64,000 nucleotides of DNA from Paractinoplanes durhamensis. GTDB taxonomy: Bacteria > Actinomycetota > Actinomycetes > Mycobacteriales > Micromonosporaceae. The stretch is from NCBI RefSeq assembly GCF_016862175.1, contig NZ_BOML01000022.1, positions 62,001 through 126,000 on the forward strand, written 5' to 3'. Under the pieces are notes generated by a model that worked only from the letters and a program-made list of their open reading frames with translations, was not told where the DNA came from and did no database searches. Of the stretch, positions 2,559 through 18,310 are shown one piece after another (position 1 is the stretch's first letter; each line of letters begins with the position of its first letter). The position numbers and the translations under genes were made by a program.

Positions 2559-5438
<2,880 letters not shown>

Positions 5439-5473: not shown

Positions 5474-6376
5474 CTATCGGACCGGTAACAACGCGACCGC
5501 GACCGTCGCCACCGCCCGACCGGCCTGGCAGGCATCGACGACGATCTCGCCGCCCCGAGTGACAGCGGTGAGCGAGACCGGCGCGTCCAACTCGGCGAAG
5601 GCGTGGAAGGTCGCGTTCATGCTGGTCATGATCATGGAAGGCGGCGAGAGCGCGGTCGCGAACTGGCGGGCCGCCTCGATGAACAGGGTGCCGGGGATGT
5701 GGTCGAGCGGGTGGTCGAAGAGTCCGGTGTGCTCCACCGGGACGAGCAGCCGGGCACGGTCGCCGGCCAGGTCGGCGAGCAGGACGTCGGCGTCGCGGAT
5801 GCGGCCGACGATCGCGGGCGCGACGGCGCCGGTGCGGTCGGCGGGCGGCAGATCGTCCGAGGTGATCAGCGCGCCGCCGCGGTGCCGAGTGCGCAGAGCG
5901 CGGTAGGCGGCCGCGCTGAGGTAGCCGACGGTCATGTCCGACTCGCCGATCGGCGTGCCGTCGAGCGACAGCGCGAAGGACGGCGCGAGACCGCGGGTGC
6001 GGCGGCCGAGCAGCTGCGGTGTCGGTGCCGGCAGGGTCATCCGCAACAGGCCGTCGCCGACCGCCGGCATCAGGGTGTACGCGTCGGGAGCGACCCGCAG
6101 CGAGAAGCGGTTCAGGATGAACGCGGCGTCCGCCTCGACCTCGAAATACGTGTGCGCGAGGTAGTTGTGGGCCTGCCGGCAGGTTTCCAGCACGAGCATC
6201 GGGTCGAGCCGCCGGTTGGCGGGCGCGGTGTGCGCCGAGTAGTACGCGTGGCCGTCGGGCAGGATCGCGGCCGCCACGAACCCGTCCGACCCGTCGGGCT
6301 GCACGTCGGTCAGGAACACCGTCGCGGCGTGGCGGCGGTGGATCGACGACGGCTCGACCGTGGTGTCAGTCCTCAT
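5474..6376 (-). CDS. AfsA-family (A-factor biosynthesis hotdog) protein
   Basis: The 300-residue protein resembles AfsA/ScbA/BarX, with two hotdog repeats at about 15-145 and 175-295. AfsA itself condenses a beta-ketoacyl-ACP with dihydroxyacetone phosphate on the way to gamma-butyrolactone signals; some relatives are regulatory instead. Supporting segments are HRRHAATVFLTDV near the N-terminus, LETCRQAHNYLAHTYFEV in repeat one and PGTLFIEAARQFA in repeat two. Start ATG 6376 overlaps the stop of the upstream flavoenzyme gene as ATGA, so I rejected a longer open frame reaching 6772. It is the last gene of the nine-gene operon, and the ACP encoded in that operon could carry its acyl substrate. 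No butyrolactone-receptor gene lies beside it. The family call is secure; the reaction is not. Confidence 0.85.
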   Translation of the reverse strand: MRTDTTVEPSSIHRRHAATVFLTDVQPDGSDGFVAAAILPDGHAYYSAHTAPANRRLDPMLVLETCRQAHNYLAHTYFEVEADAAFILNRFSLRVAPDAYTLMPAVGDGLLRMTLPAPTPQLLGRRTRGLAPSFALSLDGTPIGESDMTVGYLSAAAYRALRTRHRGGALITSDDLPPADRTGAVAPAIVGRIRDADVLLADLAGDRARLLVPVEHTGLFDHPLDHIPGTLFIEAARQFATALSPPSMIMTSMNATFHAFAELDAPVSLTAVTRGGEIVVDACQAGRAVATVAVALLPVR

Positions 6377-7209
6377 CGGATCTCTCCTTCCAGCTGGCTC
6401 AGCGCGCGCAGGTGTTCCGATAACGAGGTGAACCCGGCCCCGAGCGTGCTGACGGCCAGGTGGGTGGCACCGGCGTCCCGCCAGGCGTCGAACCCGCCGG
6501 CGCCGAGGCGGATCCGTCCGTGCATCCCGATCGCCGAGGGATCGCGGCCGGCGGACAGCGCCGCCAACGCGACGACCGCTTTGGCTGCGTCCAAAGCAGG
6601 GCCGGGGGAGAGGCGCGGCAGCCATCCGTCCCCGAGACGCCCGGCCCGTCGATAGGCCGCGTCCGAGGTGCCGCCGATCCAGATCGGGATCGACCGGGCC
6701 GGCCGGGGATTGAGCCCGGCCGCGTCGAAATGCTCGCCCGAGCCCATCAGGGTGACCGACCGCTGTGTCCACAGTGCCCGGAGCAGCGCGATCTGCTCGT
6801 CGAGCCGCGACCCGAGCCCACGCATCGGGCGCCCCAGGGCGGCGTACTCGACGCTGTTCCAGCCGAGCCCGACGCCCAGCCGCAACCGGCCCCCGGAGAG
6901 CAGGTCGACCTCGGCCGCCTGCTTGGCGACCAGCGCGGTCTGCCGCTGCGGCAGCACCAGCACCCCGGTGACCAGTTCGAGATCGCAGACGCCGGCCAGA
7001 AAAGCGAACAACGTCAGCGGCTCATGAAACGGATTGTCCACGTCGTACGGCCCGGACCAGCCCGGATGTCCGTCCGGATCGGCGCCGAGCACATGGTCAT
7101 AGGCCAGCAGATGCCGAAAACCCAGCTCCTGCACGGCCACCGCGAATTCCCGCAATTCCCTTGCCCCACCGTGCAATTCACCCTGCGGAAGCACCACGCC
7201 GATCTCCAT
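6373..7209 (-). CDS. LLM-class (F420- or FMN-dependent) oxidoreductase
   Basis: This 278-residue luciferase-like monooxygenase-fold enzyme belongs to the group usually assigned to coenzyme F420 in actinobacteria. It begins MEIGVVLPQGE and has the typical AYDHVLG, LVTGVLVLPQR, LRLGVGLGWN and IPIWIGGTSDAAYRRAGR segments, which build the TIM-barrel and cofactor site. Start ATG 7209 shares one base with the stop of the upstream UbiA gene (TGATG), and its own stop overlaps the AfsA start (ATGA). In this operon it probably performs a redox step on the pathway intermediate, for example reduction of an enone or a butenolide-like ring; that is inference. Whether it uses F420 or FMN cannot be told by eye. 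Confidence 0.85.
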   Translation of the reverse strand: MEIGVVLPQGELHGGARELREFAVAVQELGFRHLLAYDHVLGADPDGHPGWSGPYDVDNPFHEPLTLFAFLAGVCDLELVTGVLVLPQRQTALVAKQAAEVDLLSGGRLRLGVGLGWNSVEYAALGRPMRGLGSRLDEQIALLRALWTQRSVTLMGSGEHFDAAGLNPRPARSIPIWIGGTSDAAYRRAGRLGDGWLPRLSPGPALDAAKAVVALAALSAGRDPSAIGMHGRIRLGAGGFDAWRDAGATHLAVSTLGAGFTSLSEHLRALSQLEGEIR

Positions 7210-8021
7210 CAGGCCACCCCGTCGACGATCAGCGCGCTGTACAGCACGATCAGAAACAGCATCGCGGCGGGTTTCGGCCATGCGGGCACGCGCCGGCTGA
7301 GGAATGCGGCCAAGGCCGCGATCGGAAGGACCAGGATGGCGTACGGCCACCAGCGGCCCGTAAATCCGCAGGCGGCGACGGCGAACCCGAGGGCCGCGAG
7401 GGCGCTGCCGACCGGCCCGAGGGCGGTGGCGGAATACATCCGCGGGGTCGCCGCCCACGCCGTTTTACGAGCGAATTCAAAATGCAGAAAGGCAAAGGCG
7501 AAGACCAGCAGCGGCCGTACGGCGGGGGAGCCGGCCGAAACCGCGAGAAAGACGCCGATCAGCAGCTGTACGGGGTAGACCACCGCGATGTTGACCAGCG
7601 GATCGTCGCGCAGCCGCGGGAACCGGCGCTCCAGCGGGGTCAGCATCGCCGCGTAGCCGAAGAACGCCGCCGCCACCACTGCCGACCACGGCGAGTAGAA
7701 CGCGTTGGCGACCAGCACGACGGCCATCACGATGCGGCCGGCCCGGCTCAGCTCGGCCGCCGTGACCAGGCCGGTCACCAGCGGCCGGTCCGGGTGGTGC
7801 ACCCGGTCGTAGCTCTCGTCCTTGCGTTCGTCGATCAGCCGCAGGTAGAGCAGCATCGCCAGGACGGTCGCGGCGCGCAGCGCGGTGCCGCCGGTCGGCC
7901 GCCAGTCGTGGCCCGCGACAAGGGCCTCGTAGGCCGCGGTCCACAGCACCGCGTAGGTGACGTGCACCTGCGGCGCGAAGACGGCACCGACGAAACCGGC
8001 GCTGCGGGTCAGCACGGTCAC
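7209..8021 (-). CDS. UbiA-family membrane prenyltransferase
   Basis: A 270-residue polytopic membrane protein with about seven to nine hydrophobic helices. The first aspartate-rich motif is at D64-xxx-D68-xxx-D72 (IDERKDESYD), followed by HPDRPLVTG, which is characteristic of UbiA-type prenyltransferases that bind Mg-diphosphate of a prenyl donor. The second Asp-rich motif is less obvious. The GTG start at 8021 overlaps the upstream stop as GTGA; an internal GTG at 8015 is also possible. It implies that a prenyl group, or another diphosphate-linked donor, is moved onto an acceptor at the membrane during this operon's pathway. Prenyl length and acceptor cannot be read from sequence. Confidence 0.8.
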   Translation of the reverse strand: MTVLTRSAGFVGAVFAPQVHVTYAVLWTAAYEALVAGHDWRPTGGTALRAATVLAMLLYLRLIDERKDESYDRVHHPDRPLVTGLVTAAELSRAGRIVMAVVLVANAFYSPWSAVVAAAFFGYAAMLTPLERRFPRLRDDPLVNIAVVYPVQLLIGVFLAVSAGSPAVRPLLVFAFAFLHFEFARKTAWAATPRMYSATALGPVGSALAALGFAVAACGFTGRWWPYAILVLPIAALAAFLSRRVPAWPKPAAMLFLIVLYSALIVDGVA

Positions 8022-8950
8022 CGGCCGCTGACCTGCGCGGGCTGCCGCCACCGGTCGATGTCGGTGCCGCGCAGCAGCTGGGCATACTCCGGCCGGGACA
8101 ACGGCAGCGAGCCGCAGCCGACGACCGTGACGTCCCAGCCGGACACCGGCAGCCCGGCGCGCCAGATCAGCTCGACCAGCGCGCCCCAGTCTTCGGCGTC
8201 GAGCCGGGTGCGCAGCTCCGCCCGTACATAAGCCGGAAGATCTTGAAGTTGGGAAAGCTCGGCGGCGAGCCGGGCGGTGGCCGGTTCGAACCGCAGGTCG
8301 TGGGCCGGGGAGTCGGCGTAGAGCCGGTCGGCGAGGGCGGTCGCGGCGTCGTGCCGGTCGGCGCCGGGCAGCGCCTGCTGGATCAGCTCGCGGCGCTCGT
8401 CGACGTCGAGCAGGATGCCGAGCTCGCGCAGCACGTCGGCCGGTTCGTCGGAGGCGTGCACCAGGTTGAGCAGGAAGCCGTGGTCGCCGAGCCGGTAGCG
8501 CAGCTGGCCGGGGGTGCGCCGGGCCGGATCGGCCGGACCCTTGCGGTCGCTGAGCGCCACCGACGGCGGCACCCGATCGTCGTCGGGCAGGCTGAGCAGC
8601 AGCACCATCGAATCGGAGGCGGTGCACAGCGCGTCGGCCAGCCGGGAGCGGGCCGGTGTCGCGCGATTGAGCTGGTAGTGCCACATCGCCCGGACCGCGC
8701 CGCGGGTCATCGCGAAGCGTCGGGAAGCGACGATCCGGAAGCCGGACGTGCGCACCCAGTCGAGCACCGGCCAGATCGACCGGGAGGCGACGGCGTCCGG
8801 CTTGAGCAGCAGCAACGCGTGCCCGGCGGCGAATCCGATCGGGTCGGCCAGTTGGTCGTACGCGTCCAGGAAGTAGCTGTCGGTGCCGAAGTAGCGTTCC
8901 TTGGCCGGGTCGCGGGTGAGCCCGGCCGGGAACGGCGGTCCGTAGCTCAT
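8018..8950 (-). CDS. Nucleoside-diphosphate-kinase-like protein
   Basis: This is a 310-residue protein whose residues about 43-185 resemble NDP kinase. ALLLLKPDAV matches the strand carrying the phosphate-binding lysine (K50), and NLVHASDEP matches the catalytic-histidine motif (H165). A 20-residue insertion and a 125-residue C-terminal extension of unknown function (about 186-310) set it apart from housekeeping NDP kinases of about 140 residues. Start ATG 8950 overlaps the SDR stop as ATGA. Because catalytic His and Lys seem to be kept, a phosphotransfer role is plausible, perhaps making or consuming a phosphorylated pathway intermediate rather than balancing nucleotides. Its place inside a biosynthetic operon is unusual. 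The C-terminal segment is not recognised. Confidence 0.7.
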   Translation of the reverse strand: MSYGPPFPAGLTRDPAKERYFGTDSYFLDAYDQLADPIGFAAGHALLLLKPDAVASRSIWPVLDWVRTSGFRIVASRRFAMTRGAVRAMWHYQLNRATPARSRLADALCTASDSMVLLLSLPDDDRVPPSVALSDRKGPADPARRTPGQLRYRLGDHGFLLNLVHASDEPADVLRELGILLDVDERRELIQQALPGADRHDAATALADRLYADSPAHDLRFEPATARLAAELSQLQDLPAYVRAELRTRLDAEDWGALVELIWRAGLPVSGWDVTVVGCGSLPLSRPEYAQLLRGTDIDRWRQPAQVSGR

Positions 8951-9984
8951 CGGCCGACCCCGGCCAGGGCCTCGTCGACCCCCGGCAGCGGCGCGCCGAG
9001 GTAGCCGGCCCGGACCGCGTAGTCGATGATCTTCCGGAGGTGCGCCGGCCCGTCGGCGGCCCGCTTGTGGCCGCGGAAACCGGCGGCGACCGTGTCGTCG
9101 AAGTGCTGCCGGCGCCGGAAGTAGCTCTCGTAGAGCGACAGCATCCGCTCCCAGTAGGCGCGTTCGACGTCGCCGAGCGAGGCGGCCGAGAAGGTCGCCG
9201 GGGCGACGTAGCGGGGGACCCGGAACGACGGGTATTCGGCGAGGACGTCGGAGAGGTGCCGCATCGAGACGCTCGACCCGACCGCGTGCAGGGTCAGCCC
9301 GTCGGCCGGCTTCTCCACCACGTCGGCGATCAGCGCGGCGACGTGGTCGACCGGCACCAGGTCGACGCACGCGTCGAAGTGGCCGGGAATGGCGGTGACC
9401 CGGCCCTCGGAGAGCAGCTTGAGGACCACGTAGATGTTCTTGAACTCGCGGACCACGCCGGTGCGGGCGGCGCCGACGACGACGCTGGGCCGGACCACGG
9501 TGACCGCGAGCCCGTCCGAGGCCGCCTTGCGGACCAGCAGTTCGGCCTCGAACTTGCTCTCCTCGTAGTGGTTGCCGAAGCGCTGCCCGGCGTCGAGCGC
9601 GGACTCCAGGATCCGGCCGTCCTGCTCGCCGCACACGTAGGCGGTGCTGACGTGGATGAGCCGGGCGCCGGCCGCCGCGGCCAGCTCCAGGACGTGCGCG
9701 GTGCCGGTGGTGTTGACGGCCTGGTAGAGCTCGCGCGGCCGGCCGAAGTCGGTGATCGCGGCCGAGTGCACGATGAGGTCGACCTTGTTGGTGAGCGTCT
9801 GCCAGGTCGTCTCGTCGAGACCGAGCCGGGGCTGGGTGACGTCGCCCGGGATCAGCTCGGCGTTGTTCCCGACCAGGGTGCGGACGTGGTGCACCAGCCC
9901 GTACACCTCGTGGCCGTTCCTGTTGAGGCGGGCGCAGACTTCCGTGCCGACCAGCCCGGCGGCGCCGGTGACCAGGATCTTCAT
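8947..9984 (-). CDS. Extended SDR, thioester-reductase-like NAD(P)-binding protein
   Basis: A 345-residue extended short-chain dehydrogenase. The nucleotide-binding motif TGAAGLVG is at 6-13, DVT at 48-50, an STAYVCGE strand at 113-120 and the catalytic pair Y140/K144 in YEESKFEAE. The sequence style (HVSTAYVCGE, YEESKFEAE, VVRPSVVVG) is that of the male-sterility/thioester-reductase branch, which releases acyl chains from a carrier protein as aldehyde or alcohol. The ACP gene lies directly upstream with an ATGA overlap, which supports a carrier-bound substrate. A UDP-sugar-epimerase-like role is the main alternative. It sits mid-operon, between the ACP and the NDP-kinase-like gene. Confidence 0.82.
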   Translation of the reverse strand: MKILVTGAAGLVGTEVCARLNRNGHEVYGLVHHVRTLVGNNAELIPGDVTQPRLGLDETTWQTLTNKVDLIVHSAAITDFGRPRELYQAVNTTGTAHVLELAAAAGARLIHVSTAYVCGEQDGRILESALDAGQRFGNHYEESKFEAELLVRKAASDGLAVTVVRPSVVVGAARTGVVREFKNIYVVLKLLSEGRVTAIPGHFDACVDLVPVDHVAALIADVVEKPADGLTLHAVGSSVSMRHLSDVLAEYPSFRVPRYVAPATFSAASLGDVERAYWERMLSLYESYFRRRQHFDDTVAAGFRGHKRAADGPAHLRKIIDYAVRAGYLGAPLPGVDEALAGVGR

Positions 9985-10217
9985 GGCAGCACCTTCTCCA
10001 CCAGGGCGACCACGTCGCCGGCCGTCACCACGTCGACGCTCTCGCCCATGTCGAGCGGCGGGAGTCCGAAGTGTTTCTCCAGGGCCATCGCCAGCTCGAT
10101 CAGCCGCAGCGAGTCGAACATCAGCTCGTCGCGCAGCAGGGTGCCGGCGCCGATCCCGTCGATCCGGTGCGGCGCCATCGCGCCGATCACGGCGTAGCAG
10201 GACAGGTCGGTGGTCAT
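9981..10217 (-). CDS. Acyl carrier protein
   Basis: A stand-alone carrier protein of 78 residues. Helix II begins with the phosphopantetheine site MFDSLRLIELAMALEKHF; S36 in DSL is the expected attachment residue. The overall length and the acidic, helical character match discrete ACPs. Start ATG 10217 overlaps the stop of the nucleotidyltransferase gene (ATGA) and its stop overlaps the SDR start (ATGA). It is expected to hold the acyl chain activated by the adenylate-forming ligase encoded two genes upstream and present it to the reductase and perhaps the AfsA homologue. No phosphopantetheinyl transferase is encoded in the window, so one must come from elsewhere. Confidence 0.88.
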   Translation of the reverse strand: MTTDLSCYAVIGAMAPHRIDGIGAGTLLRDELMFDSLRLIELAMALEKHFGLPPLDMGESVDVVTAGDVVALVEKVLP

Positions 10218-11764
10218 CGGGCCGCCTTGGTGTGTGGCTGCGCGCCGCCGCTGGCGAGCAGGTCTTGGGCTTCGTCGAGGGGAAGCTGCTGGTCGAGGTA
10301 GGCGCCGAGGCGGAGCCAGTCGTAGCCGATGTCGAGGGTGTGCTGCCATCCGTCGGCGGAGTCGAACGACGACGGGAACGCCTCGCCGCCGGCCGCCGCC
10401 CGGACCGCGGCGATGAACTCGGCCAGGTCGCCGCCGCCGCTGGTCAGCTGGTGGGCCAGCTGGGCGATCCGGGGCTGCGGGTCCGGCAGCAGGTCGAGGC
10501 CGGCGATCAGCTCCGGGTCGCTGGGCAGCGGGCTCACGCCGTAGGAGCAGAGCAGGGCGCGCAGGCCACCGTTGACCGCCCGGGTGGTGGCGAGGGCGGC
10601 CACCCGCCACTGCTCGCGGTCGAGGGCGCCGCGCAGGTCCTCGACCGCGTTCTCGACCATGATGTTGCCCCAGACCAGGGCCATCGCGGCGGCGGCGAAA
10701 CGCTTGGCCGGCAACGGCAGCAGGTCGACCGCGCGCGGGTGCCGCGGGTTGGCGCCGCCGATGCTCAGGATCGGCTGGGTCATCGCCGGGGCCGGGGTGA
10801 CGCTGCCGAGCGGCGCGGCCAGGGGGAGGCGGGGCGCGATCGCGGCGCCCTTCCAGGAGACCCGGATCAGGCCGTAGCGGACGAACGTGGCGAGCAGGTC
10901 GCCGTCGCCGCCCAATGTGGTCAGCGGGCGGCCCCAGATGATCCGGCGCCAGGTGCGGGCGGCCTCGGCGCCGAGCACGAACACGTCCTGACGGTCGCGG
11001 ACCAGGTGGACGCGGTCGCCGATCTGCCAGGTGGTGACCTCGCGGGGGCGTTCCACGACGAGCCGGTCGGGGGTGTCGGCGCAGCCGGTCACGCCGAGGT
11101 CGGCCACCAGGCGGATGCAGTCGGCGGTCGTGTCGGTCTGCCAGTAGCGGGCGACCAGCGGGTCGGCGGCGAGCCGGTCCAGTTGCAGGGACAGCCACTT
11201 CGGTTCGAGGTAGGTCTCGCCGTTGCGGGCCGCCCAGCTCTTCGCGGCCTGCTGCAGGCCGGCCCGGGCCCAGACGGCGGCCTGGTCGTGCTGCCCGAGG
11301 GCGTCGAGCATGACCGCGTGCCGGACGGAGTGCCGGGCGTACTCGGCCCACCACTTGGTCATCACGGCCGCGAAATGGTCGTACGCCACATTCTCCCGAA
11401 CTTTTTCGATCAGGTCGGGACGCCGGACCGGATAGCCGCGCAGGAAGCGCTGGCAGCGGTTGAGCAGGTGTTCGTCGAGTCGGGCGATGGTTTTGGCCCG
11501 GCCGACCTCGAGGAGGTGCCGGCTGATCTGACCGACCGAGCGGGTGCGGATCTCCACCCGGCGGCCGTCGATGAAGAAGATCGTCGGCATGGTCGGCATG
11601 TCGGCGTCCTGGTCGGCGATCAGCAGGAAGTCGATGTCGGACCGGGAGTTGCCGAAGCCCTCGGCGATCGAGCCCTCCAGGAGCAGGGCGGCGTCGGCGG
11701 GGGCGTCGATGCGGGCGAGGGTCTGCTCGGCCAGCGACTCGATCTGCGCCTCGGAAAGGATCAT
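10214..11764 (-). CDS. Polymerase-beta-type nucleotidyltransferase with large C-terminal region
   Basis: This 516-residue protein has an N-terminal nucleotidyltransferase domain: LLLEGSIAEGFGNS (G31-S32) followed by DIDFLL (D43/D45), the metal-binding aspartates. About residues 120-215 are helical and could be a HEPN-like or substrate-binding module. The remaining 300 residues are not recognised. Start ATG 11764 overlaps the ligase stop (ATGA) and the stop overlaps the ACP start (ATGA). Enzymes of this fold attach AMP or another NMP to a small molecule or protein. A role in the pathway, or in self-protection by nucleotidylating the product as in aminoglycoside and lincosamide resistance, are both possible. 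Nothing in the sequence decides between them. Confidence 0.7.
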   Translation of the reverse strand: MILSEAQIESLAEQTLARIDAPADAALLLEGSIAEGFGNSRSDIDFLLIADQDADMPTMPTIFFIDGRRVEIRTRSVGQISRHLLEVGRAKTIARLDEHLLNRCQRFLRGYPVRRPDLIEKVRENVAYDHFAAVMTKWWAEYARHSVRHAVMLDALGQHDQAAVWARAGLQQAAKSWAARNGETYLEPKWLSLQLDRLAADPLVARYWQTDTTADCIRLVADLGVTGCADTPDRLVVERPREVTTWQIGDRVHLVRDRQDVFVLGAEAARTWRRIIWGRPLTTLGGDGDLLATFVRYGLIRVSWKGAAIAPRLPLAAPLGSVTPAPAMTQPILSIGGANPRHPRAVDLLPLPAKRFAAAAMALVWGNIMVENAVEDLRGALDREQWRVAALATTRAVNGGLRALLCSYGVSPLPSDPELIAGLDLLPDPQPRIAQLAHQLTSGGGDLAEFIAAVRAAAGGEAFPSSFDSADGWQHTLDIGYDWLRLGAYLDQQLPLDEAQDLLASGGAQPHTKAAR

Positions 11765-13320
11765 TCGGTTCCCTCGTCCTGCAGTTGCTGCCAGAGCGCG
11801 CGGCGGCGCGGTTTTCCGCTGGTGGTTCGTTTGATCAGGCCGGGGCGGCCGATGATGATCCGGATCCGGGCGGCCGGGCCGAGGCGGGCCCGGAGCAGGT
11901 CGCGGGCGGTGGTCTCCCAGCCGCCGGGGCGGCCCTCGACGAACAGGGCGACGCCGATCCGGTCGGTCTCCGGCGCGCTGACCACGACGCAGCGCGCCGC
12001 CGGCAGCCCGGTGGCCTCGATGACCGCGGCCTCCAGGTCCTCGACGTAGACGGCCCGGCCGTTGACCTTGAGGCTGTCGCCCATCCGGCCCAGCACGAAC
12101 AGTTGGCCGTCGTGGCGGAAGCCGGCGTCGCCTGTCCTGGAGAATCCGGCGGTGACCGTCGCGCCGCTGACCACGATTTCGCCGAGGTAGTCGTCCGGCA
12201 GGGGCGCGCCGTCCTCGTCGACGAGCCCGATCTCGGTGTCCAGCACCGGGCCGCCGCAGCCGGTGAGCCAGCCGCCGCGGGCCGGGACCGGCTCGTCGCC
12301 GAGGTGGAACTGCCGGTCGATCTTGACCGGGCGGCCGAACCGCAGGGTGTCCGGTTCGATCCGGACCACCAGCGGGCGGGTGCCCGGCGCGGTGCCGGTC
12401 ACCCCGAGGGTCGTCTCGGCCATGCCGTAGGCCGGGCGCAGCGTGGCCGGGTCGAAGCCGGCCGGCGCGAACGTGGTGGCGAACTTGTCGAGCACCGCCG
12501 GGTCGACCGTCTGGGCGCCGACGAACATGGTCCGCCAGCTGCGAAAGTCCCAGCCGGCGATGCGGCCTTCGGGGATGCGGGAGGCCGCGTACTCCAGGGC
12601 GAACGGCGGCGCGGCGGTCACCGCGGCCGTGGTCATGCACTCCAGCCAGCGGGCCGGGTCGCGGAGGAACTGCGCGGGCCGCATCAGCGACAGGTCACCC
12701 TGGCCGCAGATGATCGTCAGCAGCGTCCCGATCAAGCCCATGTCGTGATGGAGCGGCAGCCAGGACGCGCCGGAGTCGCCGTCCTGCCAGTCGCACCAGG
12801 CCCGCGAGCACTCGATGTTGACGGTCAGGTTGGTCCAGGTGACCGGGATGCCGCGCGGGGTGCCGGTCGAGCCCGAGGTGAACTGCAGGATCGCCAGGTC
12901 GTCGCCGGCCACCTCGGCCACGTCGATCGGCTCGTCGGCCTCGCGATGCACGAAGGTCGGCTGTTTCAGTGCCGCGGCGTACTTCTCGTCGGTGACCAGC
13001 AGCGCCGGCCGGGCGGCGTCGACGATTCCGGAGACCAGCTCGGCGTACTCGGCGGTGCTGCTGAAGCTCGGCGGCGTGATCATGCACGGCGTCAGGCCGG
13101 CCGCCCACGCGCCGAAGAACGCACACAGCACCGGATAGCCGGTCGGCATCAGCAGGCAGACCACGTCGCCCTTCTTGGCGCCGGCGGCGAGCATCGCGGT
13201 CGCGCTGCGCCGGGCCGCGAGAGCCAATGCGGCGTACGAGTAGGACTCCCACCCGTCGTCGGTGGCGATCCGCAGGCCGCGGCCGGGCCGGGGATTCGTG
13301 AGCCAGTCGCGGATGTTCAT
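11761..13320 (-). CDS. Fatty-acyl-AMP ligase-like adenylate-forming enzyme
   Basis: The protein (519 residues) is an ANL-superfamily ligase. The phosphate-binding loop is LQFTSGSTGTPRG (145-157), and WLPLHHDMGLIG (187-198) is the segment typical of fatty-acyl-AMP ligases that load carrier proteins. YGMAETTLG follows in mid-protein, and the hinge and C-terminal lysine region (RMGDSLKVNGRAVYVEDLE, then TTSGKPRRRALW) is present. Start ATG 13320 overlaps the dikinase stop and the stop overlaps the nucleotidyltransferase start, each as ATGA. It probably activates a carboxylic acid as acyl-adenylate and transfers it to the ACP encoded two genes downstream. Chain length is unknown. A CoA-ligase role cannot be excluded. 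Confidence 0.87.
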   Translation of the reverse strand: MNIRDWLTNPRPGRGLRIATDDGWESYSYAALALAARRSATAMLAAGAKKGDVVCLLMPTGYPVLCAFFGAWAAGLTPCMITPPSFSSTAEYAELVSGIVDAARPALLVTDEKYAAALKQPTFVHREADEPIDVAEVAGDDLAILQFTSGSTGTPRGIPVTWTNLTVNIECSRAWCDWQDGDSGASWLPLHHDMGLIGTLLTIICGQGDLSLMRPAQFLRDPARWLECMTTAAVTAAPPFALEYAASRIPEGRIAGWDFRSWRTMFVGAQTVDPAVLDKFATTFAPAGFDPATLRPAYGMAETTLGVTGTAPGTRPLVVRIEPDTLRFGRPVKIDRQFHLGDEPVPARGGWLTGCGGPVLDTEIGLVDEDGAPLPDDYLGEIVVSGATVTAGFSRTGDAGFRHDGQLFVLGRMGDSLKVNGRAVYVEDLEAAVIEATGLPAARCVVVSAPETDRIGVALFVEGRPGGWETTARDLLRARLGPAARIRIIIGRPGLIKRTTSGKPRRRALWQQLQDEGTE

Positions 13321-15839
13321 GCCTGCTCGAGCACCTCGATGGTGGCGGTGCCGCCGTCCATCCGGATCACCATGCCGGTCTTCAGCGCGCGGGTGGCGCC
13401 CTTGACCTTCACGATGGTCGGCACGCCCAGCTCGCGGGCGACGATCGCGACGTGGGTCAGCGGGCTGCCGCGCTCGATGATCAGCCCGGCCGCCGACGGC
13501 AGCGCCGCCACCCAGCCCGGATCGGTGCTGTAGGTGACCAGGATGCCGCCGTTGACGTCCTGCGGCCGATCCGCCACCACCACCCGGCCGGTCGCGACAC
13601 CCGGCGACGACGGCGTGCCGCGCAGCTCGCCCGTGCTCTCCGGCGGCGCACTCCAGCTGGTGAGGTTGCCCTCCCAATAGGGCGCGCCCCGGGTCTCGAA
13701 GCGCGGCGGCGCCACCAAGATCAACTGCCTTTCCTGGGTACGGCGTCGGACGGCCACGATGTCCCGCAGCTCGTCGTGCGCGATCTTGCCCTCGTAGGCG
13801 CCGCTCAGCTCGTCCAGCCGCAGCAGGAACACGTCCTCGAAGCGGTCGATCGCGCCGACCCGGTGCAGGTGCCGGCCGAGCGCGCGGAGGATCTGCTTGG
13901 CCGACCCGAACGCGCGGGTCCGGCAGAACCGCAGCCGCTCCCGGTGCGCGAGCGACTTCGCGGCCTTGCGGCGGACGAGCTCGTAGATCCACCGCTTCGG
14001 CCCGCGCAGGTGCTGGTCGAGATATTCCTGGGCGGTGTCGTTGCCCTGCGTCTCCGGCGGGGCCTGGAGGGCGTCGCGGAGCATCAGGTAGAGGCTGGCC
14101 GGGTCCTCGCGCAGGTCCGGCACTTCGAGTTTCAGCTCGTCGGGGCTGCGGTAGCCGTGCTCGGCGACATAGGACTCCACCGCCGCGGCGAATTCCGGAT
14201 TGGTGACGGCGGCCGGGATGTCGGCCGGCGGCGTCTGTTCGATCAGCCGGCGCAGCTCGTCGTCGGCCTTCACCATCTCGGCCAGCGCGGCCATCGCGCG
14301 GGCCGGCTCGGCCGACTCGACGTCCGGCCCCGGCCGGGCCGCCGCCCAGGTCAGCCAGGGCGGGGCGTCGGCCGGCAGCCACTTCTGGCCGAGCACGGTG
14401 AGCACGCCCATCGACAGCAGGATCGTCGAGTCGAGCATCTGCATCGGACCCCAGCGCAGCAGCAGGTTGCGCTGAAGCTGCTGGAACGCGCGGTAGACCT
14501 CGTCGGCCGGCATCGCGGCGTAGTCGCGCTTGTCGAACACCGCGTACTGCTCGTAGAAGTAGGCGGTGAATCGCTTGACGTCGCGCCCCATCCGGAAGAA
14601 CTTCCCGAAGAACGTGGTCGTGGTGACGAGCCTTGCCTTCTTCTCGGCGAGGCTCGACTCGAACTCGTACGGGTAGAGCGTCTCGGCGATCTCGTCCGGC
14701 AGCGACTCGTCGACGCCCATCGCGACCTCGAGCAGCCGCCGGTTGATGTCGTAGAACGGCGGGATCCGCTGCAGCCGGTACCAGTTGAGCAGGTTGTAGT
14801 AGACCCGCCCGTGGAAGCTGCCGAGCAGGCTGGGCAGCCACTCCTGCATCTGCCGCAGCTGCTTGTCGGGCACCCGCAGCGACCGGGCGAAGCTGTCGTA
14901 GACGGCGCCGTAGACCATCGCGGCGAAGGTGAAGGTCAGCGGGGACGTGACGCCGCGGAAGCTCTCCACGATGTTCGCGTTGTCCCAGATCCGCAGCTCG
15001 CCGGTCGTGATCGCCGAGGTGATCGGCCGGGCCTGCAGGATCCACAGCCGCCCGTCGGCGACCGCCCATTCGACATCCTGCGGGCCGCCGAAGACCTCGG
15101 CGATCCGCACGCCGGCCGCGTGCAGCTCGGCCAGGTCCACCTTGGCCAGCGACAGGGCCGCCCGCTCGGCCTCGCCGACGGGGTTGATCGCGACGCCACC
15201 GTCGGCCGCGTAGTCGTACCGCTCGGCCTTGTCGCCGAGGTCGGTCTCCAGCACCGCTCCGCTGCGGGCGTCCAGGATCGCGGTGTCCGCGTCGACCGCC
15301 CCGGAGACGATGCCCTCGCCGAGGCCGTAGACCGCGCTCACCACGAACGTGTCCCGGCCGCCGGTGACCGGGTCGGCGGTGAACAGCACGCCGCTGACGT
15401 CGGACGGCACCATCTGCTGGATCAGCACGCCCATGCCCGCGGGCTCGGCCGGCAGGCCGTTGGTCGCCCGGTAGGCCGTGGCCCGGTCCGAGAACGCCGA
15501 CTGCCAGCACGCCCGGACCCGGTCGATGACCTGGTCGAGCCCGCTCACGTTGAGGTAGGTGTCGAACTGGCCGGCGAACGAATGCCGGTGGCCGTCCTCC
15601 TCCAGGCCCGACGAGCGGACCGCGACCCGGCCCGAACCCGCGGCGGCGTAGGCCGCGCGGATCACCTCTCGCGCCGCTTGCCCGGACTGGTCGAACGCCT
15701 CGCTGCGGATGGCGGCCCACGGCGGGATGCGGACCCCGGCCTCGCTCAGGGCGGCCAGGTTGGCGGCCTTGGCTCCGGCGGATCGCCGGGCCTCGGCGGG
15801 GCTGTCCACGGTGACCAGATAGCCGGAGTTGTCGACCAC
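13317..15839 (-). CDS. PEP-synthase-like dikinase (ATP-grasp plus C-terminal swivelling His domain)
   Basis: The first gene of the nine-gene operon encodes 840 residues. The N-terminal third is a PPDK/PEP-synthase ATP-binding domain (VRSSGLEEDG, SFAGQFDTYL, GVLFTADPVTGG, DVEWAVADGRLWILQARP). The middle (about 325-730) is a large helical region with no obvious PEP-synthase barrel. The last about 90 residues are the phosphohistidine domain, with the expected His at 796 in ERGSPLTHVAIVARELG. This order matches rifampin phosphotransferase and the PigC-type condensing enzymes rather than true PEP synthase. It probably uses ATP to phosphorylate or activate a pathway intermediate held by the central region. 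I chose GTG 15839 because GAGAGG lies eight bases upstream; a longer frame starts at 15881. Confidence 0.82.
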   Translation of the reverse strand: MVDNSGYLVTVDSPAEARRSAGAKAANLAALSEAGVRIPPWAAIRSEAFDQSGQAAREVIRAAYAAAGSGRVAVRSSGLEEDGHRHSFAGQFDTYLNVSGLDQVIDRVRACWQSAFSDRATAYRATNGLPAEPAGMGVLIQQMVPSDVSGVLFTADPVTGGRDTFVVSAVYGLGEGIVSGAVDADTAILDARSGAVLETDLGDKAERYDYAADGGVAINPVGEAERAALSLAKVDLAELHAAGVRIAEVFGGPQDVEWAVADGRLWILQARPITSAITTGELRIWDNANIVESFRGVTSPLTFTFAAMVYGAVYDSFARSLRVPDKQLRQMQEWLPSLLGSFHGRVYYNLLNWYRLQRIPPFYDINRRLLEVAMGVDESLPDEIAETLYPYEFESSLAEKKARLVTTTTFFGKFFRMGRDVKRFTAYFYEQYAVFDKRDYAAMPADEVYRAFQQLQRNLLLRWGPMQMLDSTILLSMGVLTVLGQKWLPADAPPWLTWAAARPGPDVESAEPARAMAALAEMVKADDELRRLIEQTPPADIPAAVTNPEFAAAVESYVAEHGYRSPDELKLEVPDLREDPASLYLMLRDALQAPPETQGNDTAQEYLDQHLRGPKRWIYELVRRKAAKSLAHRERLRFCRTRAFGSAKQILRALGRHLHRVGAIDRFEDVFLLRLDELSGAYEGKIAHDELRDIVAVRRRTQERQLILVAPPRFETRGAPYWEGNLTSWSAPPESTGELRGTPSSPGVATGRVVVADRPQDVNGGILVTYSTDPGWVAALPSAAGLIIERGSPLTHVAIVARELGVPTIVKVKGATRALKTGMVIRMDGGTATIEVLEQA

Positions 15840-16084
15840 GGGGGAGTCCTCTCGGCGACGAATATGCCGTCCGCCATCCATCCACAGTCGACGAGGAGTT
15901 CACCACCCCTCAATTCGGCGGTCGCCGGGTAATAGGGGGTCCGCCGTTAACGGCGAGTTACACAATGGCGCCTCCGGTCATCACTTCGTTCACTATGAAC
16001 TGTCGCGGTGATGCCTTTGTGCGATAGGTCATACGGTAATCGCGGATCGACCAATATGGTTTCGGTCGAGCCGGGGGGAAGTAA
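15840..16084. promoter_or_regulatory. Divergent regulatory region with two perfect dyads
   Basis: This 245-base gap separates the nine-gene operon from the LAL regulator and must hold promoters for both. It contains a 14-bp perfect palindrome at 15942-15955 (CGCCGTTAACGGCG) and a 13-bp dyad at 15988-16000 (GTTCA-CTA-TGAAC). The second is nested between CATCAC at 15979-15984 and its complement GTGATG at 16008-16013. These are candidate operators for the adjacent regulator or for an unlinked receptor. The start of the LAL gene has GGGGGGAAG about five bases upstream. I could not assign -10/-35 boxes with confidence. Confidence 0.5.
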
Positions 16085-18310
16085 ATGGTGGTGCGCTTGG
16101 AGTCGTTCAGCGAGCTCGACGGGAGCCCGCTGGAACTGCTCGGTGCCAGCCTCGCGACGCCCCTCGAGCCGATGCTCGCGGTCCTCATCGAGCGGATCAC
16201 CGCGGCCCCGATCACCGTGGTCACCGGGCCGTCCGCCGTCGACCCCGCCGTGCTGCCGCGCGCGGCCGGCCGCCGCTCCGCCGACCTGCTGTTCGCCGGC
16301 TCCGGCCCGCTGCTGGCCACCGCCCGCCGGCTCGTCACCGAGGACGATCCGATGGCGGTGATCGCCGGGTTGAGCCGGCTGACCTTCGTCGCGGTCCTCG
16401 TCGACGACGCCGATCTCGGTGATCCCGATTGCCGCGCATTCGTCGACGATCTCCATCGCCGCGCGGGCGCCGACGCGCCGATAGTGGTATTCGCCTGCCG
16501 TGGCGCCGAGCGGCCGCTGAGCCTCGGCGAGCCCTATCGCCGGCTCCGATTGCGCCCACTGCCGGCCGCCGCGGTCACCGAGTTGTCCCGTGGCCGGGTG
16601 TCCGACGACGTCTACCCGTCGATCGGCGGCAACGCCGTTCTGGTGGAAGCCGCGCTGGACGACGTCGCGCCCGCCGCTTTCGGCCGGGCCGTCCACCGGG
16701 TGCTCGGCGGCGAGCTCACCCCGGTCGCCCAGGCCATCGCGGTCCTCGGCGAGCAGGCCGAGCCGTTCGTCCTGAGCCGGGTGCTCGGCATGACCCCGGG
16801 CCGGCTCGGTGAACTGTTCGACGAGCTCATCGCGATCGGCCTGCTCGCCCCCGACCACACCCTGCGCTCCCGCGTCCGCACCGCGGTGCTGACCGGCGCC
16901 GAGCCGGCCGCGAGCCGCCGCCTGAACCTGCGCGCCGCCGAGGTGCTCCACCAGGACGCCGCCCCGGCCCCGGTGGTGGCCCGGCACCTGCTCGCCGCGG
17001 GCGTCGCCGCCGAGCCGTGGGCCTCCGCCGTGCTGTGCGAGGCGGCCGGCCAGGCGGCCCGCGAGCGACGCTTCGACGAGGCCGCCGCCCAGCTCACCCT
17101 GGCCCTGGACTGGTCGGCCGCCCCGGCCGCCCGGGCCGAGATCCGGTCCCGCCTGCTCGACGTCCGGTGGTGGTCCGACCCGGCCCAGGCCGGCGACCTG
17201 CTCACCGCCCTGATGGCCGCGGCCCGCGACGGCCACCTCGCCCCGGAGCGGACCGCCCGCCTGGCCCGCCTGGCGGCTTGGCAGGGCCGCGCCGACGACG
17301 CCCTCGTCGCGCGCGACGGCGACGACCGCTGGGTCCGGCACGTCTTTCCCGGCCCAGGCACCGTCGTGCACTCCGCGGCGGCGGCGGTCGAGATGCTTCG
17401 CCATCTCACGCCCGGCGAAGCGAACCTGGAAGACGCGCAGATCGCCGTCTTCACCCTGCTCGGGCTGGAACGATTCGACCCGGACCAACCCTGGTTCGGC
17501 CGGCTCGCCCGTGCGGTCGCCGTCAGCGAGCTGCCCCCGTGGCAATCGCTGCTGGCCGGGGCCCGGGCGGCCGCCGCCCTGTGGGCCGGCGATCCGGGCC
17601 GGGCCGCCGCCGTGGCCCGGCGGGCGATCGGCGACGACCGGTGGAGCGTGCGGGAAGCGGTGCCGCGCGCCGTCCTGCTGCTGGCGCTGACCGAGCTCGG
17701 GCAGCACGCCGAGGTCGCCGCCGCGGTCACCGTCCCGGCGCCGGCCGACCTCACCCGCAGCCCGTACGGCCTGCTGCATCTGCGTGCCCGCGGCCGGCAC
17801 CACCTGGCCACCGGCGCGCCGCAGCGAGCGGCCGACGACTTCCGGACCATCGGCGACCGGCTGACGTCGTGGGGGATCGAGGCGCCCGGCCTGCTGCCCT
17901 GGCGGGCCGACCTGTCCGAGGCCCTGCTGCGGCTCGGCGACCGGGACACCGCCCGCCAACTGGCCGAGGAGCACCTGACCCGCTCGCCGGCACCGTCCTC
18001 GTGGAGCCGGACCCGGGCGGCACAGCTGCTGGCGACCACCCTCCCGGACACCGCGCCGCCCCGGCTGACCCGGGCCGAGGCGAAGGTCGCCGGGCTGGCG
18101 GCGCGGGGCCACACCAACCGCGAGATCAGCGCCCAGCTCTACATCACGATGAGCACGGTCGAACAGCACCTGACCCGCATCTACCGAAAGCTGGGCGTCG
18201 CGCGCCGCGACGAGCTCGGCGACGCCGTCCCTCAGGCGCGCTGTTCCGCCGCGTCGGCCGACTCCAGGATCAGGCGGGCCGCGTCCGGCTCGGGGACCGG
18301 GCGTGAGTAG
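16085..18310 (+). CDS. LuxR-family (LAL-like) regulator with degenerate ATPase domain
   Basis: This 741-residue regulator ends in a LuxR/FixJ helix-turn-helix (about 660-705: LTRAEAKVAGLAARGHTNRE, then MSTVEQHLTRIYRKLGV). The architecture, about 300 residues of ATPase-like fold followed by helical TPR-like repeats and the HTH, is that of LAL regulators. The Walker A loop is missing, however: the equivalent segment reads TVVTGPSAVDPAVL with no GKT/S, while a Walker-B-like VAVLVDDADL remains. ATP switching is therefore probably lost. It is divergent from the nine-gene biosynthetic operon and is its most likely local regulator. The last 26 codons overlap the convergent GGDEF/EAL gene by 79 bases. 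Start ATG 16085 is well supported by a purine-rich ribosome site. Confidence 0.82.
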   Translation: MVVRLESFSELDGSPLELLGASLATPLEPMLAVLIERITAAPITVVTGPSAVDPAVLPRAAGRRSADLLFAGSGPLLATARRLVTEDDPMAVIAGLSRLTFVAVLVDDADLGDPDCRAFVDDLHRRAGADAPIVVFACRGAERPLSLGEPYRRLRLRPLPAAAVTELSRGRVSDDVYPSIGGNAVLVEAALDDVAPAAFGRAVHRVLGGELTPVAQAIAVLGEQAEPFVLSRVLGMTPGRLGELFDELIAIGLLAPDHTLRSRVRTAVLTGAEPAASRRLNLRAAEVLHQDAAPAPVVARHLLAAGVAAEPWASAVLCEAAGQAARERRFDEAAAQLTLALDWSAAPAARAEIRSRLLDVRWWSDPAQAGDLLTALMAAARDGHLAPERTARLARLAAWQGRADDALVARDGDDRWVRHVFPGPGTVVHSAAAAVEMLRHLTPGEANLEDAQIAVFTLLGLERFDPDQPWFGRLARAVAVSELPPWQSLLAGARAAAALWAGDPGRAAAVARRAIGDDRWSVREAVPRAVLLLALTELGQHAEVAAAVTVPAPADLTRSPYGLLHLRARGRHHLATGAPQRAADDFRTIGDRLTSWGIEAPGLLPWRADLSEALLRLGDRDTARQLAEEHLTRSPAPSSWSRTRAAQLLATTLPDTAPPRLTRAEAKVAGLAARGHTNREISAQLYITMSTVEQHLTRIYRKLGVARRDELGDAVPQARCSAASADSRIRRAASGSGTGRE

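What the first reader, a model, noticed from the sequence alone, without database searches (positions are those of the whole stretch)
5474..15839. Nine-gene, fully coupled operon with an unfamiliar enzyme set
Every junction overlaps: ATGA at 13317-13320, 11761-11764, 10214-10217, 9981-9984, 8947-8950 and 6373-6376, GTGA at 8018-8021, and TGATG at 7207-7211. The set is dikinase, FAAL-like ligase, nucleotidyltransferase, ACP, thioester-reductase-like SDR, NDP-kinase-like protein, UbiA prenyltransferase, LLM flavoenzyme and AfsA homologue. There is no PKS, NRPS or terpene synthase, so standard cluster rules may miss it. Inferred logic: an acid is adenylated, loaded on ACP, reduced or condensed, then phosphorylated and/or prenylated. 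I cannot match this to a known pathway.
Basis: partly seen in the sequence, partly recalled or inferred. Interest (0 to 1): 0.8.

Follow-up and report, generated by a model that had tools for sequence, protein, structure and literature searches.

The report
Salinipostin-type butyrolactone operon in Paractinoplanes
This nine-gene operon is a sister copy of the known spt operon of Salinispora, which is linked to hormone-like lactones and antimalarial phosphate esters, so it is a new member of a known kind rather than an unknown pathway.

Summary
In detail: nine minus-strand genes (5474-15839) overlap at all eight junctions, and the enzyme set is as named. The claim that no known pathway fits is wrong. 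All nine genes recur in the same order in a 5,183,331-bp genome that I take to be Salinispora tropica (49-72% identity), in four named Salinispora species and in two named Paractinoplanes. In S. tropica a cluster called spt (butyrolactone, salinipostin, 11.1 kb) is in print (PMC7888443), and spt is counted among experimentally characterised clusters (PMC8609351). Best reading: AfsA and a flavin reductase make a butyrolactone phosphate; ligase, ACP and reductase make a fatty alcohol; two kinases phosphorylate; the UbiA enzyme joins the halves to a salinipostin-like phosphotriester. Gene identity is firm, step order is inferred. Extra results: LLM and nitroreductase genes never co-occur in 63 AfsA-bearing loci; two gene fusions; no ScbR-type receptor over cut-off found in this genome (150 of 167 candidates scored) or in five Salinispora. 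Interest 0.27.

The parts
13317..15839 (-). spt1-like dikinase (PPDK_N + PEP-utilising mobile domain), 840 aa; nearest solved sequences are 5fbs/5fbt/5fbu, deposited as 'Phosphoenolpyruvate synthase' (from recall, a rifampin phosphotransferase). Proposed: phosphorylates a fatty alcohol
   Evidence: mobile-domain His796 kept in 72 of 73 aligned relatives, the other not covered
11761..13320 (-). spt2-like fatty acyl-AMP ligase, 519 aa. Proposed: activates a fatty acid for the ACP
   Evidence: best solved match: Fatty Acyl-Adenylate Ligase 3pbk
10214..11764 (-). spt3-like nucleotidyltransferase-type protein, 516 aa; NTP_transf_2 and DUF6001 matches are below cut-off. Role unknown; proposed to activate a phosphate for ring closure
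   Evidence: G31, S32, D43, D45 in 72 of 73 relatives, the other not covered; no convincing solved relative
9981..10217 (-). spt4-like acyl carrier protein, 78 aa, Ser36 in DSL
   Evidence: 22.6 bits, cut-off 20.8; Ser in 52 of 52 relatives
8947..9984 (-). spt5-like SDR of the thioester-reductase/NAD_binding_4 kind, 345 aa. Proposed: acyl-ACP to fatty alcohol
   Evidence: best solved match MxaA; Tyr140, Lys144 and G7, G10, G13 in 82 of 82 relatives
8018..8950 (-). spt6-like NDP-kinase-like protein with C-terminal extension, 310 aa. Proposed: second phosphorylation
   Evidence: His165 in 65 of 66 (the other not covered) and Lys50 in 66 of 66 relatives
7209..8021 (-). spt7-like UbiA-type transferase, 270 aa. 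Proposed: joins alkyl chain and lactone phosphate
   Evidence: profile matches digeranylgeranylglyceryl phosphate synthase 6m31, E 3.9e-4; D64, E65, D68, D72 in 63 of 63 relatives
6373..7209 (-). spt8-like LLM flavoenzyme, TIGR03619 over cut-off (F420-type), 278 aa. Proposed: reduces the butenolide double bond
   Evidence: never together with the nitroreductase-family gene in AfsA-bearing relatives
5474..6376 (-). spt9-like AfsA/ScbA gamma-butyrolactone synthase, 300 aa, the only AfsA gene found in this genome
   Evidence: (NF041195 203.8 bits, cut-off 200); E64, R67, E234 in 65 of 65 and R237 in 64 of 65 relatives
15840..16084 (.). intergenic region, expected to hold the operon promoter; divergent from a LuxR-family regulator gene at 16085-18310 (+)
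   Evidence: promoter not mapped. The divergent regulator is kept beside the operon in P. tereljensis (56%) only, so its role is open

Best explanation
The operon is the Paractinoplanes orthologue of the spt operon of Salinispora and makes a gamma-butyrolactone carrying a long-chain alkyl phosphotriester (salinipostin-like), probably with simple A-factor-like butyrolactones. Shown: gene identity, order and conserved residues. Inferred: (1) AfsA (spt9) joins a beta-ketoacyl thioester to dihydroxyacetone phosphate to give a butenolide phosphate; (2) the LLM flavoenzyme (spt8) reduces it to the lactone phosphate; (3) ligase (spt2) and ACP (spt4) load a fatty acid and the SDR (spt5) reduces it to a fatty alcohol; (4) the dikinase (spt1) phosphorylates the alcohol, as rifampin phosphotransferase does with its drug (recalled), and the NDP-kinase-like protein (spt6) adds a second phosphate, to the alkyl phosphate or to the lactone phosphate; (5) the UbiA enzyme (spt7) joins the halves, with a saturated alkyl diphosphate in place of a prenyl diphosphate; (6) the nucleotidyltransferase-like protein (spt3) activates the phosphodiester for closure of the cyclic enol-phosphate ring. 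About 0.9 for the orthology, 0.75 for an alkylated butyrolactone phosphotriester as product, 0.35-0.4 for this step order.
For: All nine genes collinear in G181 (taken as S. tropica, 49-72%), P. tereljensis (71-86%) and P. ferrugineus (72-83%) and in four further Salinispora species. The L050 matches span 11.05 kb, against 11.1 kb in print. SDR tree: window with the two Paractinoplanes (100/99), and by path length next nearest to Salinispora. Residues conserved. NDK, UbiA and the nucleotidyltransferase occur in all 63 AfsA-bearing loci. LLM and nitroreductase exclusive: 7 LLM, 49 nitroreductase, 7 neither, 0 both, of 63. Solved-sequence neighbours fit the roles: MxaA reductase (92), acyl-AMP ligases (93), 5fbs (66), DGGGP synthase (91). 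Salinipostins, cyclipostins and A-factor are related in structure (PMC6681047, passages).
Against: No metabolite is known from this strain, and a survey of Salinispora extracts did not detect the spt products either, which its authors put down to culture or extraction (PMC8609351, passages). AfsA (49%) and UbiA (50%) are the least conserved against G181, so chains may differ. Of 63 AfsA-bearing loci, 21 keep the SDR but show no ligase or ACP, so the SDR may not act on that ACP everywhere. An NDK-AfsA fusion in L053/L054 argues that spt6 may work on the lactone side. The fork joining Paractinoplanes and Salinispora SDRs is unresolved. The nucleotidyltransferase has no clear solved homologue. 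The papers on spt enzymology were not held; a published step order could differ from mine.
Confidence: 0.85

Rival explanations
1. The operon makes only a free A-factor-like butyrolactone hormone; the phosphate and alkyl genes serve another lipid, and signalling through an ArpA/ScbR-type receptor is its function.
For: AfsA is over the ScbA/BarX cut-off; from recall, Sal-GBLs come from the same operon in Salinispora. Most of the other spt-like genomes looked at have ScbR-type proteins over or near the cut-off (10 of 35 over it, 29 of 35 at E <= 1e-30).
Against: NDK and UbiA occur in all 63 AfsA-bearing loci, so these genes are tied to AfsA. No ScbR-type receptor over cut-off was found in this genome (best 119.4 bits against 150; 150 of 167 candidates scored), in G181 and G229 or in four named Salinispora; the same search finds 202.6 bits beside a second, separate AfsA in P. 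ferrugineus.
Confidence: 0.15
2. The set makes an unrelated new lipid: the ligase-ACP-reductase-dikinase core is the pathway, and AfsA was recruited for another condensation.
For: The core occurs without AfsA, NDK and UbiA: ACP-SDR-dikinase-nucleotidyltransferase with thymidylate-kinase-like and acyl-CoA dehydrogenase-like genes in five Lentzea loci.
Against: The window has the full nine-gene set collinear with spt, and its SDR groups with Paractinoplanes, apart from the Lentzea group.
Confidence: 0.08
3. The cluster is silent or decayed and makes nothing.
For: No expression data; patchy: 3 of 67 genomes of the genus, own included, have the SDR at E <= 1e-60.
Against: All nine frames intact; the residues that relatives conserve are present.
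Confidence: 0.05

Closest known systems
spt (salinipostin / Sal-GBL) gene cluster of Salinispora
   Same: Nine genes, same order, same orientation; overlapping junctions also in S. mooreana; 49-72% protein identity to G181
   Different: Another genus; AfsA and UbiA only about 50% identical; five neighbouring window proteins tested, none matched a Salinispora locus
A-factor/SCB butyrolactone systems of Streptomyces (AfsA/ScbA with ArpA/ScbR)
   Same: AfsA/ScbA-family synthase over cut-off
   Different: No ScbR-type receptor over cut-off found in the genome; phosphate- and alkyl-handling enzymes in the operon
spt-like clusters of Nocardia, Rhodococcus, Gordonia, Tsukamurella, Streptomyces and Kutzneria
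   Same: Nucleotidyltransferase, SDR, NDK, AfsA and UbiA in all 63 AfsA-bearing named loci, dikinase in 62
   Different: Nitroreductase-family gene in place of the LLM in 49 of 63; no ligase or ACP in 21 of 63 (Streptomyces and Kutzneria loci); in N. brasiliensis L095 ligase and nucleotidyltransferase are one 1170-aa frame

Membership tests
spt salinipostin gene cluster | nine genes dikinase-ligase-nucleotidyltransferase-ACP-SDR-NDK-UbiA-LLM-AfsA in one order and orientation | tested here: met
spt salinipostin gene cluster | common branch with the Salinispora genes | tested here: inconclusive
   SDR tree: Paractinoplanes clade 100/99, Salinispora clade 99/99; nearest by path but the joining fork is drawn open
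spt salinipostin gene cluster | product is a butyrolactone phosphotriester | not testable with these tools
   needs metabolomics
AfsA/ScbA gamma-butyrolactone synthase | two AfsA hotdog domains, family score over cut-off, conserved E/R residues | tested here: met
ArpA/ScbR-type signalling system | cognate receptor over the NF041196 cut-off in the genome | tested here: not met
   best 119.4 bits, cut-off 150, 150 of 167 candidates scored; positive control found in G208
rifampin-phosphotransferase-like dikinase | ATP-binding domain plus mobile domain with catalytic His | tested here: met
   substrate not tested; that 5fbs is a rifampin phosphotransferase is recalled (deposited name: Phosphoenolpyruvate synthase)
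UbiA superfamily | Asp-rich motif and family profile match | tested here: inconclusive
   motif invariant in 63 of 63 and profile matches UbiA structures at E 3.9e-4 and 0.011, but no Pfam match and NCBIfam only far below cut-off

The most novel reading that the evidence does not exclude
spt-type operons make a saturated alkyl diphosphate (fatty acid to alcohol to mono- to diphosphate through a dikinase and an NDP-kinase-like enzyme) that a UbiA-type enzyme uses like a prenyl diphosphate to alkylate a butyrolactone phosphate. The acyl-alcohol-phosphate half is a transferable module, also paired with a different kinase in Lentzea, and in Salinispora and some Paractinoplanes the product acts without an ArpA/ScbR-type receptor.
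Probability: 0.3. Interest if true: 0.55.

Novelty: new member of a known kind. Interest (0 to 1): 0.27.

Why it matters
It removes a false unknown and adds Paractinoplanes genomes to the spt family. The comparison gives testable leads on enzymes whose roles I did not find described in the papers held (searches; the main spt papers are not held): which flavoenzyme fills the reductase slot, what the UbiA enzyme transfers, and whether an AfsA product can work without an ArpA/ScbR-type receptor. Salinipostin A inhibits the malaria parasite (PMC6681047, passages), so relatives with other chains may be worth isolating.

Tried and rejected
Rejected: that no known pathway matches; that overlap alone makes it unusual; that the divergent LuxR gene is a fixed part (kept in 1 of the 2 other Paractinoplanes and in no Salinispora locus); a link to mobile elements (SDR: no match in plasmids at E <= 1e-40; none in viral contigs).

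Led nowhere: the LLM as a search anchor (12 of 396 genomes of the phylum at E <= 1e-70, own included; I did not examine their neighbourhoods). The NDK as anchor: 36 of 200 family genomes matched, own included, but besides own only G181 over 45% identity. Solved-structure search of AfsA gave only chance-level matches; the nucleotidyltransferase profile matched talin and DrrA weakly, which I take as chance. My gene caller is crude: with its first threshold it found almost nothing in L063, it skipped the 78-aa ACP gene in the window (minimum 80 aa), it chose a minus-strand frame over the LuxR gene at 16085-18310, and it misplaced some starts; the 11 of 27 is therefore rough. One search used wrong coordinates and was not used. 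Seven of 63 AfsA-bearing loci had neither reductase by my search; I did not look further into these. The receptor search over named loci took 35 of the 63 AfsA-bearing ones, and there at most 67 candidates a genome were scored (P. tereljensis 67 of 187, Kutzneria 67 of 218; the four Salinispora in full).

Papers: PMC7888443, PMC8609351, PMC6681047, PMC11095149, PMC12114271, PMC12838356, PMC12224297, PMC8222398 and PMC12394500 were seen as passages only. Creamer 2021 was seen only as a title in reference lists, Amos 2017 only as a citation; Kudo 2020 on spt enzymology was not seen at all and is recalled.
Full report
Check of the observation. Each frame ends in a single stop. Overlaps are frequent in this window (11 of 27 other same-strand neighbour pairs by a crude caller), so complete coupling is notable but ordinary for a dense operon. 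In S. mooreana (L059) all eight junctions overlap by 1-4 bases, and in P. tereljensis (L051) seven of eight overlap (starts as set by my caller).

What the genes are. Pfam and NCBIfam give: a dikinase with ATP-binding and mobile domains; a fatty acyl-AMP ligase; a weak nucleotidyltransferase; an ACP; an SDR of the thioester-reductase kind; an NDP-kinase-like protein with a C-terminal extension; a diverged UbiA-type protein without a Pfam hit; an LLM flavoenzyme over the TIGR03619 (F420-type) cut-off; and AfsA, 203.8 bits against a ScbA/BarX cut-off of 200. The AfsA gene is the only one found in the 10.5-Mb genome (two domain hits, both in this gene).

Identity of the operon. The nine genes recur in one order and orientation in G181 (single 5,183,331-bp contig; same family), G229 and G208. 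The printed range RS20900-RS20940 makes nine tags if tags go in steps of five. Four named Salinispora species (mooreana, pacifica, oceanensis, cortesiana) carry all nine in order. PMC8609351 (passages) counts spt among nine experimentally characterised Salinispora clusters, but did not detect its product in its own extracts. From recall, not from a call: Kudo et al. 2020 tied this nine-gene operon to salinipostins and A-factor-like Sal-GBLs and reported homologous clusters in many actinomycetes; Creamer et al. 2021 (title seen) surveyed spt-like clusters. So this is a new member of a known kind. In its own genus it is rare: 3 of 67 genomes, own included, have the SDR at E <= 1e-60.

Comparison across 80 named loci, chosen by SDR similarity as the best 80 of 362, genes counted anywhere in loci of at most 21 kb. 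AfsA is present in 63 of 80; all 63 also have NDK, UbiA and the nucleotidyltransferase, and 62 of 63 the dikinase (the other, L068, is cut by a contig end). Six loci (L058-L062, L064) have the full nine-gene set. LLM at over 45% identity occurs in 7 of 63 (L099 has a 29% match on the other strand, not counted), a nitroreductase-family gene near UbiA in 49 of 63, both in 0, neither in 7. Nitroreductase identity was checked by Pfam in four representatives. I read this as one slot for a flavin reductase, most simply the butenolide reductase (inference). Ligase and ACP are both present in 42 of 63 and both missing in 21 (20 Streptomyces loci, one of them cut, and Kutzneria). Of the 17 loci without AfsA, five Lentzea loci have ACP, SDR, dikinase and nucleotidyltransferase with a thymidylate-kinase-like and an acyl-CoA dehydrogenase-like gene (Pfam in L085 only, the others by similarity to it); six proteobacterial loci (L129, L130, L134-L137) have the SDR and none of the other eight; L126 is cut by a contig end. 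Ligase and nucleotidyltransferase form one 1170-aa frame in N. brasiliensis L095, and NDK and AfsA form one frame of 682 and 680 aa in L053 and L054, from another genus of the family.

Residues (the 80 named loci plus L053 and L054, where the gene aligned; L050-L052 were left out). Dikinase His796 is kept in 72 of 73 (one not covered), NDK His165 in 65 of 66 (one not covered) and Lys50 in 66 of 66, ACP Ser36 in 52 of 52, SDR Tyr140 and Lys144 in 82 of 82, UbiA D64/E65/D68/D72 in 63 of 63, nucleotidyltransferase G31/S32/D43/D45 in 72 of 73 (one not covered). AfsA E64, R67 and E234 are kept in 65 of 65; R237 in 64 of 65. The catalytic roles of these residues are recalled from the families. The ligase has His191 where 45 of 48 relatives have Tyr.

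Receptor. A search with the ScbR family (cut-off 150 bits) gave at best 119.4 bits in this genome (150 of 167 candidates scored) and nothing over cut-off in G229, G181, G073 or G053; in G208 it found 202.6 bits next to a second AfsA, which serves as a positive control. Among 35 genomes of named AfsA-bearing loci, 10 had a receptor over cut-off: all eight Streptomyces taken, P. ferrugineus and Rhodococcus rhodnii. Six had no match at 1e-30: four Salinispora, P. tereljensis and Kutzneria, the last two with only part of their candidates scored. The 17 Nocardia had best scores of 134.6-148.5 bits, just under the cut-off. If the product is a signal in this genome or in Salinispora, it is probably not read by a typical ScbR-type protein.

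Mechanism. The solved-sequence neighbours support the role guesses without proving them: the SDR is nearest to the MxaA terminal reductase, the ligase to fatty acyl-AMP ligases, the dikinase to 5fbs and related entries (deposited as phosphoenolpyruvate synthase; a rifampin phosphotransferase by recall), and the UbiA profile to digeranylgeranylglyceryl phosphate synthase (E 3.9e-4), which alkylates a glycerol phosphate lipid (recalled). Salinipostins are bicyclic enol phosphates with an alkoxy chain, and a structural relation to A-factor is noted in print (PMC6681047, passages). The scheme in Best explanation follows. Two facts pull apart on the NDK: a different kinase family accompanies the dikinase in Lentzea, where there is no AfsA (suggesting an alkyl-phosphate kinase), whereas the NDK-AfsA fusion and strict co-occurrence with AfsA suggest the lactone side. 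I leave that open.

Verdict. The value lies in the family comparison rather than in the window itself. The rival confidences concern the product and are not exclusive with the orthology.

Noticed in passing
window 16085-18310 (+): LuxR-family regulator (GerE domain at the C-terminus) divergent from the operon; conserved in the same place in P. tereljensis (56%, L051) but not found in the P. ferrugineus or Salinispora loci.
   Followed up: partly
G208:C47:32549-36247: P. ferrugineus holds a second AfsA gene beside two ScbR-type regulator genes, one over and one under the family cut-off, apart from its spt copy.
   Followed up: partly
L053:9869-11917, L054:6583-8625: NDK-like and AfsA domains in one open frame of about 680 aa, in a divergent cluster that also has SDR, ACP, dikinase, nucleotidyltransferase and weakly UbiA-like genes.
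   Followed up: partly
L095:6208-9720: Ligase and nucleotidyltransferase in one 1170-aa frame in Nocardia brasiliensis; other Nocardia not checked for this.
   Followed up: no
L081, L085, L087, L089, L091: Lentzea loci with ACP, SDR, dikinase and nucleotidyltransferase plus thymidylate-kinase-like and acyl-CoA dehydrogenase-like genes, without AfsA, NDK or UbiA; P450 and methyltransferase genes nearby in L085. Product unknown.
   Followed up: partly
L129, L130, L134, L135, L136, L137: Proteobacterial (mostly Erythrobacteraceae) SDR relatives at 41-45% identity with none of the other eight genes in the locus (L136 is only 7.9 kb).
   Followed up: no
G000:C69:32905-33738: A second LLM flavoenzyme in the window's own genome, 55% identical to the operon's.
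   Followed up: no
window 11761-13320: Ligase residue 191 is His here but Tyr in 45 of 48 relatives.
   Followed up: no
window 2559-5402 (-): Downstream gene, by eye a secreted M4/M28-type peptidase (no family search run); no match in the related loci.
   Followed up: no
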